Under the pieces are notes generated by a model. It had not been told where the DNA came from and did no database searches. It worked only from the letters and a program-made list of their open reading frames with translations. The position numbers were made by a program, and so were the translations under genes. From Myxococcales bacterium SG8_38 (lineage in GTDB: Bacteria > Myxococcota_A > Polyangia > Polyangiales > Houyiibacteriaceae), in the NCBI GenBank assembly GCA_001303415.1, contig LJTN01000002.1:1-64000 (forward strand): a stretch of DNA of 64,000 bases. The letters run 5' to 3'. This document shows positions 8,176 to 33,700 of the stretch, piece after piece. Every line of letters begins with the position of its first letter. Within the stretch, counting starts at the first letter, position 1.

Positions 8176-9295
8176 AGAGCGCGTCGATCGACGATGCAAA
8201 TGCGCCTCTCGAGTGATGTGCGGCGAGGTAGCGAAGGGCTCGTTCGCGAAGCGAGCCTGCCAAGCGCGGATCGTCGATCACGCGGCGGGCGGCTGCCGCC
8301 AACGCATCTGGATCGTCATTTTCGACCACCACGCAGGCCCCGTCTATCGAAAGGCCCGCTTTGGCACGCTCCATCGCGATGACGGGCAGTCCGCGGGCAA
8401 AGGCGTCCAGCATCTTGATGGGGAGCCCACCTTCGGTTCGCCTGGGAACCCAGGCCACATCGCTCGCGGCGTGAACCAGCGCACGGGCCCGCTCACCGTC
8501 GAGACCGCGGAAATGCACCGAATCTTCGACGCGCCATCGCCGCGCTTCGCGCCGCGCCGGGGTCGGGTCGGACTCCGTCGCGATCAGCAGCGAAGCGGTG
8601 GGGTGGGTGGAACGGAGAATCGCCAGCGCCGTTGGGAGATGCTCCCAGCCTTGGTAGCGATCGAGATTGCCCGCATAGAGACAGATGCGCGCATCCAAGG
8701 GCAGGTCGAGCGCATCGCGGGCTCGAACACGGCTTGGCTGCTCGGCGCTCGAGGCCGACCGCCAAGGCACCGGCAGGTAGACTGCTTCGTTCCCCAGGAG
8801 CTCGGCGAGCGCCGGGGCGACCGCAGCGACTCCATCGGCCTGCCTGCAAACGAACGCTTCGCTCGGCGCCGCCACGGCAGACACCATCTCTTCGGGAAGC
8901 GTGGGCAGGTACACCGGAAGCTCCCGGTGCACGCAAGTGTGCGCGACGTAGTACAGAGGCCGAACCCTTGCTGCAAGCGCTGCGAGCGCAGCTTCGACGT
9001 GGTGCGCCACGATCGCGTCGGGTTGGAGAGTTCGCGCCAAGCGCCGCGTCTCGGCAATGCATCGCGCATCGAGCGCAAGCTTTCCGAGGGAGGGGCCGGA
9101 GCGTAGCGATCGGACCTTGGGGAAGTCCGGGATTCGGTGAATGGGGTAGCGCGCCTCGGGCGCGTAGGCGCCATGCGAGTAGACCAGCAGGTGAGCGGAG
9201 CGATTGGACTCGATCGAAGCGCGCAGCATGGCGTCGATCGCCGCCTGGGTGCCCTGGTAGCTCGGAAAGGGGAGGCAAGCGAGATGCAGGATCAT
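8099..9295 (-). CDS. Glycosyltransferase family 4/1-type
   Basis: ICLYAGNLDRYQGWEHLPTAL...FRGLDGERARALVHAASDVAWVPRRTEGGLPIKMLDAFARGLPVIA; ATG at 9295 overlaps the upstream stop (ATGA). Confidence 0.85.
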   Translation of the reverse strand: MILHLACLPFPSYQGTQAAIDAMLRASIESNRSAHLLVYSHGAYAPEARYPIHRIPDFPKVRSLRSGPSLGKLALDARCIAETRRLARTLQPDAIVAHHVEAALAALAARVRPLYYVAHTCVHRELPVYLPTLPEEMVSAVAAPSEAFVCRQADGVAAVAPALAELLGNEAVYLPVPWRSASSAEQPSRVRARDALDLPLDARICLYAGNLDRYQGWEHLPTALAILRSTHPTASLLIATESDPTPARREARRWRVEDSVHFRGLDGERARALVHAASDVAWVPRRTEGGLPIKMLDAFARGLPVIAMERAKAGLSIDGACVVVENDDPDALAAAARRVIDDPRLAGSLRERALRYLAAHHSRGAFASSIDALFSREARSEPKPAGRQQAASPAPRAR

Positions 9296-11004
9296 TCGAT
9301 GTAGCCCAGGGCGCGCAGCCTCGATTCGATCAACCCCTGGTTGCGGCTTTGCCCTGACCCAAGAGGCTCTGGTGAGGGTAGGGGCTGCGCGGAAGCATCC
9401 CGGTCTTGTCGCAGGGCCTCCCAAAGAACGCGACCCTTGAACGAGGTCGGAACCGAGAGCCCGAGCCGACACAGCAGCGTGGCGGTCAAGTCTGCGATGT
9501 GCGCGTCGATCCGGCCCGCGGCGCCGACGCTCGGCCCGGCCAGGGCCATGAACCCGTGCGAGCGGTGACTGCCCGGCAAGCTTCGCCCTTTTTTGCCGAT
9601 CTTCTCTTGCTCGGCGAGGCGACGGAAAGACGAGCTGCGCGACCTGTCATTCGGGCCACCACGATGCGGCTCGGAGGGCGCTCGAGCGCTTGGCATGAGG
9701 TTATACGAGTAGCCGTCGTCGAGATGAAGGTCGAGCAGAAGGTCGGGGGCGCGATCGAGAAACGGGCCCTCGAAGAGCGCTTCGCGCGGGATCACATCCC
9801 GGAACACCGGACGATGGGTCCAGGGATCCCGCGCGGTGAGCAAAGACGCACGCACGCGGCGCATCGTCTCGCCCGCCTGCTCCGGCGGCACGATGCCACG
9901 CGGCTCGCGATCCGCCAGGTTCAGATAGATGCCCGGGAAATAGTTGAGCTCGTCGCTGAAGGCGACCGTGTGTCGCATGTCGATCGCACCGAAGCGGACG
10001 CTCGATTCGAGCCGGCTCGGCAGCCATGCGTTGCCCAGGCGAAAAATCCGCTCGCGTAGACGCGGTGGAAAGCGACGGAGCGCAATCTCCTTCAGCCTGG
10101 CGCCGGCACGGCTTCGGCGCGGGCGAAAACGAAGCAGCCCATGCTCCGCAAGCAACCGATTGAGATAGAGCACCTTGTCCGAAGAGCCGCCCGATCCATG
10201 ATCGCTGAGCACCGTGACCTCGGTTGCGGCCCCGCCTGCGCCGGCCACGAGCGCGCCCACCGCGCGGTCGAGCGACTCGTAGACCCGGGCGAGCCCTGCA
10301 CCCGCTTTGGGCGTGACGTGCGCAGGCTTGCGCGGTGAATCGGGATCGTGATGCGCCCAGAGGTAGTGCGACGCGGTGTCGCTTTCCCCGAAGTAGACGG
10401 CAAAGACGTCCCAGTCTCGCCGTTCGAGAAGCCATCGCGCCCACTCGGTCTTTCGCTCCACTCTTTGCTCGAGCGCTCCGGGAAGATGGTCGATCCACCC
10501 AGGGCTATCCGCATGAAACTCATCGACGTCATCGAACGTGGGAGCGCCGAATCTGCGCACCGTCTCGTCATAGAGCGAGGGCGGCCACATGAACGAACGG
10601 TCCGCTTCGAAAGCGACGGGCGCATCCCAGCCACTCACGAAGATGCCGTGCTCGAGCCTTTCAGGCGGCCAAGTCGCGGGAAAGCTCAGACAGGCGCAGC
10701 GAAGCCTTAGTGCATCGAGCTGCTTGAAGATCGTGGGGACCTCCCGCGCGGTGCCCGCCGTGAAACGGATCTGGTACCCCTTGCGCGTGGTGAAGTCGAA
10801 AACCCCATGCTGTGCCGGGTCGACGCCCGTGAGGAAAGTGGTCCAGTTGGGAAGCGTCGCCGGAGGCTGCACCGATTCGAGGGCGGCATAGGCGCCGCCC
10901 GCCATCAGCGCGTGGATGTGCGGGAGCCGCTCCGGTCCGAGCTGCTCGACCAGACGCAAATCAAACCCATCGAGCCCCACCACCAACGCACGCGCACCCA
11001 CCAC
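9292..11004 (-). CDS. Alkaline phosphatase / type I phosphodiesterase-nucleotide pyrophosphatase family protein
   Basis: ALVVGLDGFDLRLVEQL...LPNWTTFLTGVDPAQHGVFDF...TVLSDHGSGG, typical of the AlkP/NPP superfamily. Confidence 0.85.
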   Translation of the reverse strand: MVGARALVVGLDGFDLRLVEQLGPERLPHIHALMAGGAYAALESVQPPATLPNWTTFLTGVDPAQHGVFDFTTRKGYQIRFTAGTAREVPTIFKQLDALRLRCACLSFPATWPPERLEHGIFVSGWDAPVAFEADRSFMWPPSLYDETVRRFGAPTFDDVDEFHADSPGWIDHLPGALEQRVERKTEWARWLLERRDWDVFAVYFGESDTASHYLWAHHDPDSPRKPAHVTPKAGAGLARVYESLDRAVGALVAGAGGAATEVTVLSDHGSGGSSDKVLYLNRLLAEHGLLRFRPRRSRAGARLKEIALRRFPPRLRERIFRLGNAWLPSRLESSVRFGAIDMRHTVAFSDELNYFPGIYLNLADREPRGIVPPEQAGETMRRVRASLLTARDPWTHRPVFRDVIPREALFEGPFLDRAPDLLLDLHLDDGYSYNLMPSARAPSEPHRGGPNDRSRSSSFRRLAEQEKIGKKGRSLPGSHRSHGFMALAGPSVGAAGRIDAHIADLTATLLCRLGLSVPTSFKGRVLWEALRQDRDASAQPLPSPEPLGSGQSRNQGLIESRLRALGYIE

Positions 11005-11047
11005 CCGACCCTAGCGCGTCCCCCAACCCCCCGCACACGTACCAGAT

Positions 11048-11291
11048 CCCCCGGAGGACGGGTCGCGACGGGCGTGCTCGCGAGCGGGACCCGCTCGCCT
11101 GACGCCTCAAGTCATCGCACGACTAGGCTCCCGCCCCCTCGCTGTGCTGCCCATCCCGACCCGTCCTCCTGCGTAGACGTCGGTTTCAGCGACAGCGGCA
11201 GTGGCAGGGTCAGCGACAGTGGCAGCGACGGGAGCAGCGTCAGCTTCAGCGACAGCGTCAGTGACAGAGGCAGCGATCCCGTCCTCCGGGG
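11048..11291. repeat. Inverted repeats bracketing a hexamer array
   Basis: CCCCGGAGGACGGG (11049-11062) inverted against CCCGTCCTCCGGGG (11278-11291), 14/14; a third copy ACCCGTCCTCC at 11159-11169; near-palindrome GCGAGCGGG-A-CCCGCTCGC at about 11080-11098. Confidence 0.7.
11185..11274. repeat. Degenerate hexanucleotide array, about 15 units of NNCAGN
   Basis: TTCAGC GACAGC GGCAGT GGCAGG GTCAGC GACAGT GGCAGC GACGGG AGCAGC GTCAGC TTCAGC GACAGC GTCAGT GACAGA GGCAGC; strict 6-nt phase. Confidence 0.8.
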
Positions 11292-11366
11292 ACTTGGGTT
11301 GAGCGACCGGGGTTGACGTTTCCTGACGTCGGGTGTCGTGTCTTGCCAAGCGAAGAGTCGTGTGCA

Positions 11367-11553
11367 GGGGCGCGGAAAAACGCGACATGGGGCGGAGCGG
11401 GCGTGCGAAGTGCCAATCGGCAAGACAGCAACCACCTCCGATTGGCGCGCCGCCCGAGGGGCGGGTTGCGTGGCCCAAGCCCACAAGTGCATCGGGGCAC
11501 CTATGCAAGCCGCCCCGTCCCGTGCAGCCCCGTGTCGTGTTTTTCCGCGCCCC
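11367..11553. repeat. Long imperfect inverted repeat with nested hairpin
   Basis: GGGGCGCGGAAAAACGCGACATGGGGC (11367-11393) vs GCCCCGTGTCGTGTTTTTCCGCGCCCC (11527-11553): 25/27 complementary; nested GCCAATCGG(11412-11420)/CCGATTGGC(11438-11446). Confidence 0.75.
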
Positions 11554-11560
11554 GGGGGAC

Positions 11561-13021
11561 CTAGGAGCGGGTGCGTTGCTGCAGTCGACATGTGGACGCG
11601 GGGTTTGGACCCGTCATCCCCACCCCGCCTCCCCCAACGCTAGCGCCTAGGTCCTTTCCTTGGATGCCCGGGGGTCTTGGGATGCCGAAGGCGGCGAGGA
11701 TGGTTGGCGTCACGTCGTAGATCTCCGCGCCCTCGATTCGACCCCGTCGTGGGGCGTTGCCGCCGCTCATCACGAAGATGCCTTCCCAGTCGTGATTGCA
11801 GCTGTCGGGGCCAGTGTCGTTTTCGAGCACGACCCGCCTACGGTTTCCAACCGAGCCGATCGCGCGTAGCGCGAGGTCGTCGAAATACACCATCAAGTCG
11901 GGTGGAAACCCTCGTGCGCTTCGGTAGTGCTCCTCCGGAATCCGAGCCACGGTTGGGATCGGCTTGCCTTCGTCGTCCCGGATATCTTCGAGGGCACGCC
12001 GGAGCTCGGCGCGCATCGCGCCGAGCGCATTTGGCGCAACCACGCCAAACGGCTCCCGCCCCGCGACGTTGACGAAGACCCTCGCATAGTACCCGCCCTC
12101 GGCCCACGCTCTGGTTCGCGTCCAGTCGATGAGACCATGATCGAGCGGGGTCGCCGCAGCCGGCGGCTCGCGGAGCGTCAGGTACCGGCGCTCGATCAAC
12201 CAATCATTGATGCAAACGCCGCCACGCATCGCGCGCGCGCCATGGTCGCTCACCACCAGGACGGTGGTCTCGTCGCCCGCCAGCTCGCAGAGCCGCCCGA
12301 TGTGCGAGTCGAGCCGCGCGTAGTATTCATGTCCGAGCCCTTTCCAGGGGTTCTTGGGGTCGTGCCGGGGGTGCTCCGGATCGATGTGGCGCCAGAACGC
12401 GTGGTGAAACCGGTCGACGCCGATCTCGACCATCATCAAGAAGTCCGGATTCTTTTCCTTCCAGACGAGCTCGGCGATCTGGAAGTGTTGCTCGGTCATC
12501 GCAACGATGTCGCTGTAGATGCGATCGAGATCCTCCGCCCGAAACCGCTGCACGTCCGCCCGGTAGGCGCCGACTCGATCGACGATCTCGGTCTCCAAGC
12601 TTCGCGGGAAGCACCAAGGCGCATCGGCGCCGGGCCACAAGAAGCCGGAGATCATGTGTCCCCGTACCGGGCTCGGGGGGAACGTGAGCGGAACGAAAAG
12701 CGGTGCAACGCGAAAGCCGTGATCGCCGAGCCAATCCCACACGCGCTTGGAGTGCACGTCTCGACCATCGGCGAGACGAAGCGCGGTCTCGCCCTCGACC
12801 CGATTGCGAAAGCCATAAAGACCCAGCTCCCCAGCATCGCGTCCCGTGACCATGCAGGTCCAAGCCGGCACCGTGATCGGCGGCTCCGAGCTTCGAAGCG
12901 CGCCCCAGGAGCCACGTTCCATCAGCGCCGATACGTTGGGCATCGCATCGCGGTAGCGCTCGAACACGAGCTGCGGCGGCGCGCAGTCGATTCCGATCAC
13001 GATCATCCGCCCCTTACCCAT
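11561..13021 (-). CDS. Alkaline phosphatase / type I phosphodiesterase family protein (second paralog)
   Basis: MIVIGIDCAPPQLVFERY...VPAWTCMVTGRDAGELGLYGFRNR...TVLVVSDHGARAMRGG...PDLMVYFDD. Confidence 0.85.
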   Translation of the reverse strand: MGKGRMIVIGIDCAPPQLVFERYRDAMPNVSALMERGSWGALRSSEPPITVPAWTCMVTGRDAGELGLYGFRNRVEGETALRLADGRDVHSKRVWDWLGDHGFRVAPLFVPLTFPPSPVRGHMISGFLWPGADAPWCFPRSLETEIVDRVGAYRADVQRFRAEDLDRIYSDIVAMTEQHFQIAELVWKEKNPDFLMMVEIGVDRFHHAFWRHIDPEHPRHDPKNPWKGLGHEYYARLDSHIGRLCELAGDETTVLVVSDHGARAMRGGVCINDWLIERRYLTLREPPAAATPLDHGLIDWTRTRAWAEGGYYARVFVNVAGREPFGVVAPNALGAMRAELRRALEDIRDDEGKPIPTVARIPEEHYRSARGFPPDLMVYFDDLALRAIGSVGNRRRVVLENDTGPDSCNHDWEGIFVMSGGNAPRRGRIEGAEIYDVTPTILAAFGIPRPPGIQGKDLGASVGGGGVGMTGPNPASTCRLQQRTRS

Positions 13022-30271: not shown

Positions 30272-30585
30272 GGCTCGATCTGCTGCGCGAGCTCGGCGTC
30301 AGCCTGCAGCCTCTGATCGATGCGCCGAATGGCCGCGCCGACCACTTGGCGTGTCTTCATCTCCAGCGTCTCGCGCCTGCGCTCCGATGCTTCGAGGTCC
30401 TCGGCGAGACTCAGCGCCACGACCGCGAGCAGCTGCGCTGGCGTAGCCGTACGCGCCGCCTTGGGTCCCAGCGCTTGCACTCGTTCGTTGACGATGTCAG
30501 CAAGTCGCTGAAGGTAGGCTTCGTCGGCGTCCGAGGACATACGGTAACGGGCGCCAGCAATTTCGATCTGTACGGTGCGCTTCAC
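30268..30585 (-). CDS. zapA: Cell division protein ZapA
   Basis: VQIEIAGARYRMSSDADEAYLQRLADIVNERVQAL; 4-nt overlap with fau. Confidence 0.85.
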   Translation of the reverse strand: MKRTVQIEIAGARYRMSSDADEAYLQRLADIVNERVQALGPKAARTATPAQLLAVVALSLAEDLEASERRRETLEMKTRQVVGAAIRRIDQRLQADAELAQQIEP

Positions 30586-30740
30586 GGTTGCAGCGAAGGT
30601 AGTCCCCGAGCTCCGCGGGCGTCAAGGTAGGACATTCACGCTCATGTTCCTTTGTTCCGCTGGCGCCGGAATCCCACTACGGGGGTTTATGAGGGACGCA
30701 TCGAGCGTGTTATGTTGATCACCGGGGGACGAGTAGGGTC

Positions 30741-33700
30741 ATGATCAAGGTTAGCTGCCCGTCATGTAGTGCGTCTTACGAGGTGGACCAGAACCGTCTG
30801 CCGAAGGACGGGCTGCGAATGCGCTGTCCGAAGTGCAACCAGAGCTTTCACGTTCATCGCGACGGCTCGACGGCAAAGGCCGGAGCAGGTGCCGCGGCGT
30901 CCGTGAGAAAGCCCGCGCAGCGAAAGCCAACGCAAGCGGGAATCGGCCCCGCCTCGCCGCCCGGCCTTCCCGCGGCGGCCAAAAAACCCGTTCCTTCGAA
31001 GTCGGCCGATCCGCAGATCGATCTGCCGACTCCGTTGGCCGGCGATGCGCACGATGATTTGCCTATTCCCGGAAAGAGGAAGGGCCCTCTCGGATTCGAT
31101 TTGTTCGACGACGCCGGCGCAGCGGATCTTCCGGCGCCTAGAGACGAGGCAGCGCCATCCGGCTTCGATCCCTTCGCCGATTTGGATCTTCCCGCGCCGC
31201 TCGAGGGGCCGGGCGCCGCCGGTCTGGCGGATCTACCCGCCCCGCGTGGGGGCTCCGCCAACACCGATCTGCCGGCACCGCTTCGCGGCCGCGGCGCTTC
31301 CGGCCCCGACCTGCCCGCTCCGAGAGGCGCAGCCCAGGCTCGGTCGATCGATCCGATCGAAGAGGAAGTCGACCTTCCCATGGCGCTCACCGACGCGGAG
31401 CTGCCTAAGCCGAAAACGGATTCCAAGCTGCCGAATCCGATTTCGCTCGACTCGGATCTTCCCGTGCCGAGCCGGCAGCAGGATCTGCCCGTGGCGCGTG
31501 ATGACTTCATGGATCTCGATCTCGATCTCGACGGTCCGGAGCGCGTTCACGGAGGCGGCCCGATCGAGCTGGACCTACCGGAGGGGGACGATCTCGATCT
31601 GGACATGGACCTCGAGGAGCCGGTCAAGGCGCCGTCGCCACCGCCTCCGATCGGTCAGCCGTTTGGCGAGGCCAAAAGCCAAGACCGTATCAGCCACGAT
31701 TCTGCCGACCTCGACCTTCCCGACCTGACCGAAGATGGGGACGAAGTCCATCGCATGCCGAGGCTCGAACGAGCTGAGCCGGTAGCGGCTCCCAAGCGCA
31801 AGGCCAAGGCGATTGCGTTCAAACGCCCGCCGTGGCTCATCAAAGCCGCCGCGGCGCTCGGTGCCGCCGGAGTGGTGCTCGGCGCCGGGTTCTACGCCGG
31901 CACGACCAAGTACGGGCTGTTCGGCATCCACATGGTGGAGCCTTTCCTTCCTGCCTCGGGCGATGCGGTGGCGGTGGCTCAGGCGATCGAAGAGGCCGAG
32001 CAAATCGCCTCGTCGGATACGTTTGCCGACACCCGCCGCGCGCTCGATTCACTCGAAGCCGCGCGTCGAGACGCGGGTCTGAATCGTGCGCTCATCGCGC
32101 GGAGCCTCTTGCACGAGTCGTACTACCTGGCTCGCTACGGACAGGATGCTCAACGTGCGGCGGTGGCCGACTCGTTGCGGCTGCATCTGCAGCGGCGGGG
32201 TGATGAGGCGCCGCGGATTCACGTGGCCTTGGCTGCGGATGCCTTGCGCAATGCCGACACGGCTACGGCGGAATCCGAAATCGCGCTTGCCGCACAGGAG
32301 GACCCGACCGACGCCTACGTCGATCTGGTTTCGGGCGAGATTGCCCTGCGCAAACGGCAAGGGCAGGCGGCGCTCGACGCATTTGGGCGCGGTGCGAAAA
32401 AGCACGACAGTGGGCGGGCGCAGTGGGGCCTCGCCCGCGGTCGTCTCGTGCTCGGCAATGGAGACGAGGCCCTGCGGGCTGCGCAGGCCACCCTCGCCCT
32501 GAGCCCAAATCATGCGGGCGCGCGCGTTGCCGTGGCCGAGCGGTCGATTGCGGATGGCAATCTCGATGATGCCTACGAAGCTCTGAAAGCGCCGGCCGGT
32601 CTCGTGCCGGTCGAAAACGCGACGCTGCAGGTGGCGCGCGGCGACAAGTCGGCGGCGCTCTCGCTCATCGCACGCATCGAGGAGCACCGAGGACGGATGG
32701 GCGCCGCTCGGGAAATGTACGACAAGGCGCTCGAGCTCGATAGCGGCAACACAGAGGCGGCGCTTGGCGCGGCGCGACTGGTGCTCTTGGAGCGCGGCTA
32801 CCAAGACGCCTACGCTCGGTTCCAGACCGTTCTCGGTGCCGAGATCGAGCCTGGCGCACCGATGGACCCGACGGGCAAGCCCAAGGTGATCGTCGCAGCC
32901 AAGCTCGGCGCAGCCGAAGCGTTGCTCGCCATGAACAAGGCAGAGGAAGCCAATCGGGTGTTGTCGGACCTCGGGACGCCCGAGCCGGTCAATGCGCGGG
33001 TGGAGATGTGGCAGGGCAAGATCGAAGCAGCCCTCGACCGAAGCGACGAAGCGGTTCGCCACTTTCGAAACGCCATCACGCTCGATCCCGGAGCGATCGA
33101 CGCATATATGGCGTTGGCTCAGCACTACACCGACACCAACCGGCCGACCGAGGCCGTGGCGGTCCTGGTCGAAGCGCAAAAGAACGTGCAGATCACGGCC
33201 GGGGTGCGGCGCCTCTTGGGGTGGGCGGAGCTCCAGCGGAACGAGCTCGATGCGGCGATCACCCAGTTCGAGCAGGCCCTCGAAATGGAGCCAAGGGATT
33301 CCTCCGCACAGTTCGGCGTGGCGCAAGCGTATCGCCGCAAGTCGAGGCTCGAAGAAGCGGCCGCCGCGCTCGCCAAGGTAGAGGAAATCGACGCCAAGTT
33401 CCCCGGGCTCCAGCTCGAGAAGGGCCGGCTCGCCGAAGCGCGAGGGGACCTGCAGGCGGCCATCGCGAGCTACCGCGAGGCATTGGCGCAGACTCCCAAC
33501 GATGCCGCGCTCAAGTCGCGTCTGGGCGCCTCCCTCGTGCTCAGCGGCGAGCTGAAAGAGGCCGAGGCGCTATTGCGCGAAGTGCTCGAAGCCCAGCGGT
33601 ATTCCGCCGAGGCCGAGCACTACCTCGGCCGCATTGCGCTCGAGCGGAATCAGCTCGACGAAGCACAGCAGCATTTCCAAAGAGCCTCGCGCCTCGAGCC

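What the first reader, a model, noticed from the sequence alone, without database searches (positions are those of the whole stretch)
11005..11560. Dense nested inverted-repeat region between two phosphodiesterase-family paralogs
About 555 bp with no convincing gene contain: a 14/14 inverted repeat bracketing a hexamer array, a third copy of its core, a near-perfect 19-bp palindrome, a 25/27 inverted repeat with a 133-bp gap and a nested 9-bp hairpin. This is far more structure than other intergenic gaps in the window. It could be a non-autonomous mobile element, a structured ncRNA or a regulatory/attenuation region.
Basis: seen in the sequence. Interest (0 to 1): 0.65.

Follow-up and report, generated by a model that had tools for sequence, protein, structure and literature searches.

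The report
Mosaic of mobile palindromic DNA repeats
The stretch is a patchwork of three kinds of foldable repeat that have multiplied through the genomes of one genus of uncultured Myxococcota, one of which forms a conserved branched structure that almost always sits where genes end, and these copies inserted here after related species had split off.

Summary
Window 11049-11654 is a mosaic of dispersed repeats: module A (133 bp), a hexamer array, an inverted copy of A's end (A'), module B (about 190 bp) and part of module C. The own genome (a 3.6-Mb Myxococcota draft) has about 64 B copies, and 18 of 19 same-genus genomes carry B. Outside the genus only 1 of 183 sampled phylum genomes did. Orthologous gaps in other species of the genus are about 40-140 bp and lack A and B, so the block is an insertion. 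C's insertion replaced the end of the upstream phosphodiesterase gene. B has a three-way-junction fold with strong covariation (23 of 62 pairs changed on both sides) and is more stable on the + strand in 66 of 72 copies. B lies between convergent genes in 38 of 53 intergenic copies (background 20%), often a few bases from a stop codon, and A/T tracts flank its basal stem. Best reading: trans-mobilised, MITE-like composite repeats that settle at gene 3' ends, B probably acting as a structured 3'-end element or bidirectional terminator. No mobiliser with matching ends was found: the RAYT has other termini and RT genes are rare. The hexamer array links these units to PF05635 four-helix-bundle genes.

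The parts
11049..11182 (+). Module A: dispersed repeat of about 133 bp. Its ends GGAGGACGGGTCG...CGACCCGTCCTCC (11053-11169) pair, and it holds the palindrome 11080-11098
   Evidence: BLASTN copies of 93-98% identity in the own genome; the A-end pattern occurs 32 times in G000 and 39 times in G013 with 0-1 hits for the reversed control; fold z -3.5
11080..11098 (.). 19-bp palindrome GCGAGCGGG-A-CCCGCTCGC inside module A
   Evidence: sequence; present in aligned A copies
11183..11277 (+). Hexamer array, (N)CAGYGN-type units with 12-bp higher order; of the same kind as the arrays that flank PF05635 genes in this genus
11278..11297 (-). A': inverted copy of A's left end (14/14 with 11049-11062; fuller copies elsewhere reach 26 nt)
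11360..11556 (+). Module B: structured repeat of about 190 nt, a three-way junction with a 35-bp basal stem (arms 11367-11401 / 11519-11553), a CAATCGG/CCGATTG hairpin and a GGGGCGG...CCGCCCC arm
   Evidence: covariance model R1 213.7 bits at 11360-11556; covariation; strand preference
11586..11654 (+). Module C, right arm only (ATCCCCACCCCGCCTCCCCCAACGCTAGCGCCTAGG); intact C elsewhere is a TIR element of about 140 bp
   Evidence: inverted pairs spanning 139 bp on C54, C79 and C99
11561..13021 (-). Upstream type I phosphodiesterase/nucleotide pyrophosphatase-family gene; its last 29 codons are read from module C
   Evidence: PF01663 E 8.9e-43; orthologs stop about 3 residues after GRD/GKD
9292..11004 (-). 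Downstream phosphodiesterase-family gene, the other flank of the insertion
   Evidence: PF01663 E 1.2e-36; synteny in sister species

Best explanation
The region is a nest of non-autonomous, MITE/REP-like repeats that inserted between two co-oriented genes after this lineage split from its sister species. Repeats A (with its inverted end copy A' across a hexamer array), B and C are members of genus-wide families. They are moved in trans by an enzyme not yet identified, and they accumulate just downstream of stop codons, mostly between convergent genes. B is kept as a branched hairpin on one strand, with A and T tracts around a GC-rich stem, so its most likely effect is to end transcripts or give them a structured 3' end from either side. 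Shown: repetition, empty sites, the structure and its covariation, strand preference, 3'-end location, and the new C-terminus from C. Inferred: current mobility, the mobiliser, transcription, and terminator activity.
For: Repetition: many A, B and C matches of 74-98% identity in the own genome, 64 B copies by covariance model, 18/19 same-genus genomes. Empty or different orthologous gaps. TIR-type ends and composite order A-hexamers-B-A' elsewhere. Covariation: 65 both-side-changed cells versus 18.3 shuffled, 97.1% of cells paired versus 37-49% when slid. Strand preference: in pairs predicted on both strands, 122 G-U versus 22 A-C; + strand more stable in 66/72 copies. Location: convergent gaps 38/53 versus 49/251 background, binomial p about 3e-16; divergent 1/53 versus 68/251. 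C supplies the last 29 codons of the upstream gene.
Against: No target-site duplication was evident by eye. No transposase or other large gene lies between inverted A ends in G000 or G013. The simple terminator scan finds nothing, since the B hairpin is interrupted by a branched insert. Gene calls were heuristic and copies share descent, so the p-values are optimistic. G.T pairs also favour one strand in single-stranded DNA. All genomes are uncultured and nearly all are drafts; no RNA data.
Confidence: 0.78

Rival explanations
1. REP/REPIN system: the repeats are moved by the single-copy RAYT (Y1 tyrosine transposase, PF01797) of these genomes, which cuts single-stranded hairpins.
For: A Y1 gene, mostly a single one per genome, in 13/19 same-genus genomes; A starts with GGAG, similar to REP tags; hairpins, no visible TSD.
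Against: The own RAYT gene is flanked by a different 67-nt inverted repeat (GGGGACACTCTCC type) with no A, B or C at its ends. It is absent from G001 and G009, which have 40 and 54 B copies, though those genomes are about 80% complete.
Confidence: 0.15
2. The units are derivatives of an element built on PF05635 (23S_rRNA_IVP/Avd-like) four-helix-bundle genes. The hexamer array is their seat and the four-helix-bundle proteins act as nucleic-acid chaperones for copying or homing.
For: Convergent PF05635 pairs lie inside hexamer arrays of the same kind. On G000:C71 the order is A-hexamers-4HB-hexamers-B. PF05635 is homologous to the DGR protein Avd (PMC10053308).
Against: Most PF05635 loci of the genus lack A and B nearby. 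G004 and G009 have 43 and 54 B copies but no PF05635 hit. RT is in only 2/19 genomes. No catalytic domain is known in the family.
Confidence: 0.15
3. A fixed regulatory or attenuation element of the two phosphodiesterase genes.
For: It sits between two co-oriented genes and is strongly structured.
Against: Most orthologous gaps of the genus lack A and B; the same DNA occurs at dozens of unrelated loci; B copies are placed by gene ends, not by gene identity.
Confidence: 0.03
4. B is a host-selected bidirectional terminator family spread by gene conversion or recombination, with no active mobile element today.
For: Convergent-gap placement, A/T tracts at the stem, covariation.
Against: Nested insertions of C inside B and independent insertions in one gap of several species look like transposition.
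Confidence: 0.2

Closest known systems
Bacterial MITEs (for example Correia/NEMIS-type elements)
   Same: short, multicopy, inverted-repeat ends, no transposase gene, intergenic, fold into hairpins
   Different: no target-site duplication seen, no partner IS with the same ends found, nested composite with a hexamer array, branched covarying structure in B
REP/REPIN and BIME repeats (PMC3116915, PMC3733652, PMC2817692)
   Same: GC-rich palindromes in mosaics, extragenic, often near gene ends, many copies, probably trans-mobilised
   Different: much longer units (133-190 bp); the RAYT present has unrelated termini; B is a three-way junction, not a simple hairpin
CGTC-tagged palindromic repeats (PMC3733652)
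   Same: palindromic repeat families without a dedicated transposase
   Different: those are short REP-size repeats; size, sequence and mosaic form differ here
23S rRNA intervening sequences with PF05635 proteins
   Same: complementary ends and, in some copies, a PF05635 gene inside
   Different: here dispersed between protein genes, not in rRNA; most copies carry no PF05635 gene
Bidirectional intrinsic terminators
   Same: GC-rich stem flanked by A and T tracts, between convergent genes
   Different: 140-nt branched insert in the hairpin; a dispersed repeat family

Membership tests
MITE | multicopy short element without its own transposase | tested here: met
MITE | terminal inverted repeats | tested here: met
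   A/A' 14-26 bp, B 35 nt at 86%, C inverted arms
MITE | target-site duplication | tested here: inconclusive
   flanks of complete composites compared by eye, none evident
MITE | autonomous partner with the same ends | tested here: not met
   no inverted A-end pair enclosing a large gene in G000 or G013; the spacings seen are about 190-530 bp
MITE | empty orthologous sites | tested here: met
REP/REPIN with RAYT | Y1 transposase (RAYT) in the genome | tested here: met
   13/19 genomes
REP/REPIN with RAYT | RAYT gene flanked by the same repeats | tested here: not met
   own RAYT flanked by an unrelated inverted repeat; two more RAYT loci with usable flanks also showed no A/B/C
REP/REPIN with RAYT | 20-40 bp palindrome with GTAG/GGAG or CGTC tag | tested here: inconclusive
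   A ends read GGAG...CTCC, but the units are 133-190 bp
Known structured RNA (Rfam 15) | match to any curated family | tested here: not met
   no hit at E<=1
Structured RNA (new) | covariation above shuffled and slid controls | tested here: met
Structured RNA (new) | transcribed and stable | not testable with these tools
   no RNA-seq held
23S rRNA IVS / PF05635 element | PF05635 gene between complementary ends | tested here: not met
   no such ORF in the window unit; present in a few other copies
Intrinsic terminator | simple hairpin followed by U tract | tested here: inconclusive
   simple scan negative; basal stem followed by TTTTT on both strands, but with a branched insert

The most novel reading that the evidence does not exclude
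Across Myxococcota, PF05635 four-helix-bundle genes mark a little-described kind of mobile element whose flanks are short tandem arrays (period 6-8), often inverted; the A-hexamer-B units of the window are its non-autonomous descendants, and B is the RNA that the Avd-like proteins recognise for copying to gene 3' ends.
Probability: 0.12. Interest if true: 0.85.

Novelty: new variant of a known kind. Interest (0 to 1): 0.55.

Why it matters
It gives a well-delimited repeat system, with copy counts, empty sites, a covarying branched structure and a strong preference for gene 3' ends, in a bacterial group where we found no such families described. It makes two questions testable: what moves palindromic repeats that lack a transposase with matching ends, and whether mobile DNA supplies transcription termination between convergent genes. 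Its link by hexamer arrays to PF05635 genes, relatives of the Avd protein of diversity-generating retroelements, offers a lead on a protein family whose role outside DGRs is unknown.

Tried and rejected
RAYT as mobiliser: its own ends are unrelated. Reverse transcriptase: only 2/19 genomes. Autonomous copy with A ends: none in G000 or G013. Rfam: nothing. Simple terminator scan: nothing. Fixed regulatory element of the PDE genes: empty orthologous gaps. Proposal that PF05635 units always sit in A-B frames: most do not. Hexamer array as part of a serine/aspartate-repeat gene: the + frame reads SD-like residues, but it lies in a repeat with no open gene around it and hexamer arrays recur in several contexts; not tested further. 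Literature searches for PF05635 with tandem arrays or transposition found no description. Full texts of subscription journals were not searchable.

Full report
What is there. The window belongs to a 3.6-Mb draft genome (105 contigs). Searches place it in an uncultured genus of Myxococcota: all exact matches to a B-core pattern in 84,980 prokaryote genomes lie in MAGs labelled Myxococcales, Polyangiaceae, Deltaproteobacteria or uncultured bacterium. Between two co-oriented type I phosphodiesterase-family genes (PF01663) lie, in order: module A 11049-11182, a hexamer array to 11277, A' 11278-11297 (the inverted copy of A's left end), module B 11360-11556, and the right arm of module C to 11654. 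The structure is above chance (B z -8.8, A z -3.5, C z -2.3).

It is repeated. A search of the own genome with 751 bases gave 98 matches, in which A, B and C appear as separate families. A covariance model of B (R1) finds 64 copies in the own genome, up to 69 in a sister species, and copies in 18 of 19 same-genus genomes. In a sample of 189 genomes of the phylum only the genus and one other genus of the family (G021, 6 copies) were positive. The A end occurs 32 times in G000 and 39 times in the single-contig genome G013, against 0 and 1 for the reversed control pattern. C is an element of about 140 bp with inverted arms, 16 arms in the own genome. Several draft contigs end inside B, as repeats cause in assemblies.

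Anatomy. Elsewhere the usual order is A - hexamer array (present or absent) - B - A', with A and A' as inverted ends of up to 26 bp. In the window B and part of C lie outside A'. C is found inserted inside B in two other copies (L025, L034), so the families nest in each other. No copy encloses a transposase: inverted A ends are spaced about 190-530 bp in G000 and G013.

Empty sites. The two flanking genes are neighbours in most same-genus species. Their gaps are about 40-140 bp without A or B in G003, G004, G005, G006, G007, G010, G011, G012, G013 and G015. G002 has an independent A-like insertion in the other orientation, G013 a short C-like piece, and G007 and G011 a GGGG(A/T)CAG(T/A)CCCC palindrome of a different type in the same gap; G016 and G018 have inserts of 3-4 kb that I did not study. 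The window's 638-bp gap is therefore an insertion, made more than once in this gap by different elements. C inserted into the last codons of the upstream gene: orthologs end about three residues after GRD, while here GKD is followed by 29 codons read from C.

Structure and strand of B. RNAalifold on 18 diverse copies gives a three-way junction of 62 pairs; 23 pairs have a change on both sides with the pair kept. Controls: 65 such cells against 18.3 in shuffles (0/500 as high), 97.1% of cells paired against 37-49% when slid. To avoid choosing the strand by the fold, I folded the alignment on both strands and used only pairs predicted on both: 122 G-U cells against 22 A-C on the + strand; single copies are more stable on the + strand in 66 of 72. 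Selection has thus acted on a folded single strand with the window's + polarity. This fits RNA; single-stranded DNA with G.T pairs is not excluded.

Where B sits. With heuristic gene calls (longest ORFs with high-GC codon bias), 53 intergenic B copies from 12 species had both neighbours: 38 between convergent genes, 14 between tandem genes, 1 between divergent genes. In unbiased stretches of two genomes plus the window, 49 of 251 gaps of at least 100 bp are convergent and 68 divergent; binomial p is about 3e-16 for the excess and 1e-6 for the deficit. In 47 of 53 the gene on B's right runs towards B, often with its stop codon 1-15 bp away. The window copy follows this rule. Copies share descent (for example L278 and L285 look orthologous), so the p-values are optimistic, but the effect is large.

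Mechanism. The most likely account is trans-mobilised repeats that survive, or land, at gene 3' ends. B's basal stem is preceded by an A tract and followed by a T tract, so each strand offers a GC-rich stem followed by U residues; a role as bidirectional terminator or structured 3' end is inferred, not shown. The simple terminator scan is negative because of the branched insert.

Search for the mobiliser. A single-copy RAYT is present in 13 of 19 genomes, but in the own genome it has its own inverted termini without A, B or C. RT genes are in 2 of 19. The hexamer array gives a third lead: PF05635 (23S_rRNA_IVP) genes of this genus, usually convergent pairs about 50-90 bp apart, lie inside arrays of the same kind, and one own-genome unit reads A - hexamers - 4HB - hexamers - B (L034). 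Most PF05635 units are not in A-B frames, however, and genomes without a detected PF05635 gene are rich in B. I keep this as a lead.

A wider pattern noticed. In 25 PF05635 loci from other genera the two 200-bp flanks are complementary beyond every in-locus control in 16 cases (about 1 expected), and several of these flanks are tandem arrays of 6-8 bp units. PF05635 is related to the Avd protein of diversity-generating retroelements (PMC10053308) and has been seen in cas loci (PMC3936711); I found no paper on the array flanks in the library searched.

Comparison and verdict. It works like MITEs and REP/BIME mosaics. MITE membership fails or stays open on the partner transposase and the target duplication; REPIN membership fails on RAYT flanking. 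I rate it a new variant of a known kind, of moderate interest, with a small chance of something more unusual through the PF05635 link.

Noticed in passing
L244-L268, L064-L069, L078-L083 (PF05635 loci of other Myxococcota genera): PF05635 four-helix-bundle genes often have inverted flanks made of short tandem arrays (period 6-8, for example GTCAGAG x4 / CTCTGAC x4 in L249); 16 of 25 loci exceed all in-locus controls.
   Followed up: partly
L084-L101 (G016, G002, G012, G013, G015): PF05635 genes in this genus come as convergent pairs in hexamer arrays; in L084 and L034 each gene is preceded by a long hairpin that covers its Shine-Dalgarno sequence.
   Followed up: partly
window 11561-11654: The last 29 codons of the upstream phosphodiesterase gene are read from repeat C, replacing the conserved end of the protein.
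   Followed up: yes
L196 1350-2198 (G000:C101): Single RAYT (Y1 transposase) gene flanked by a 67-nt inverted repeat of GGGGACACTCTCC type, unlike A, B or C.
   Followed up: yes
L178 and L183 (G011, G007), PDE gap: GGGGACAGTCCCC / GGGGTCAGACCCC palindromes lie in the same gap where the window has A, B and C.
   Followed up: no
G016:C5 about 93285-97362 and G018:C28 about 30381-33679: Inserts of about 3-4 kb separate the same two phosphodiesterase genes in two species; content not examined.
   Followed up: no
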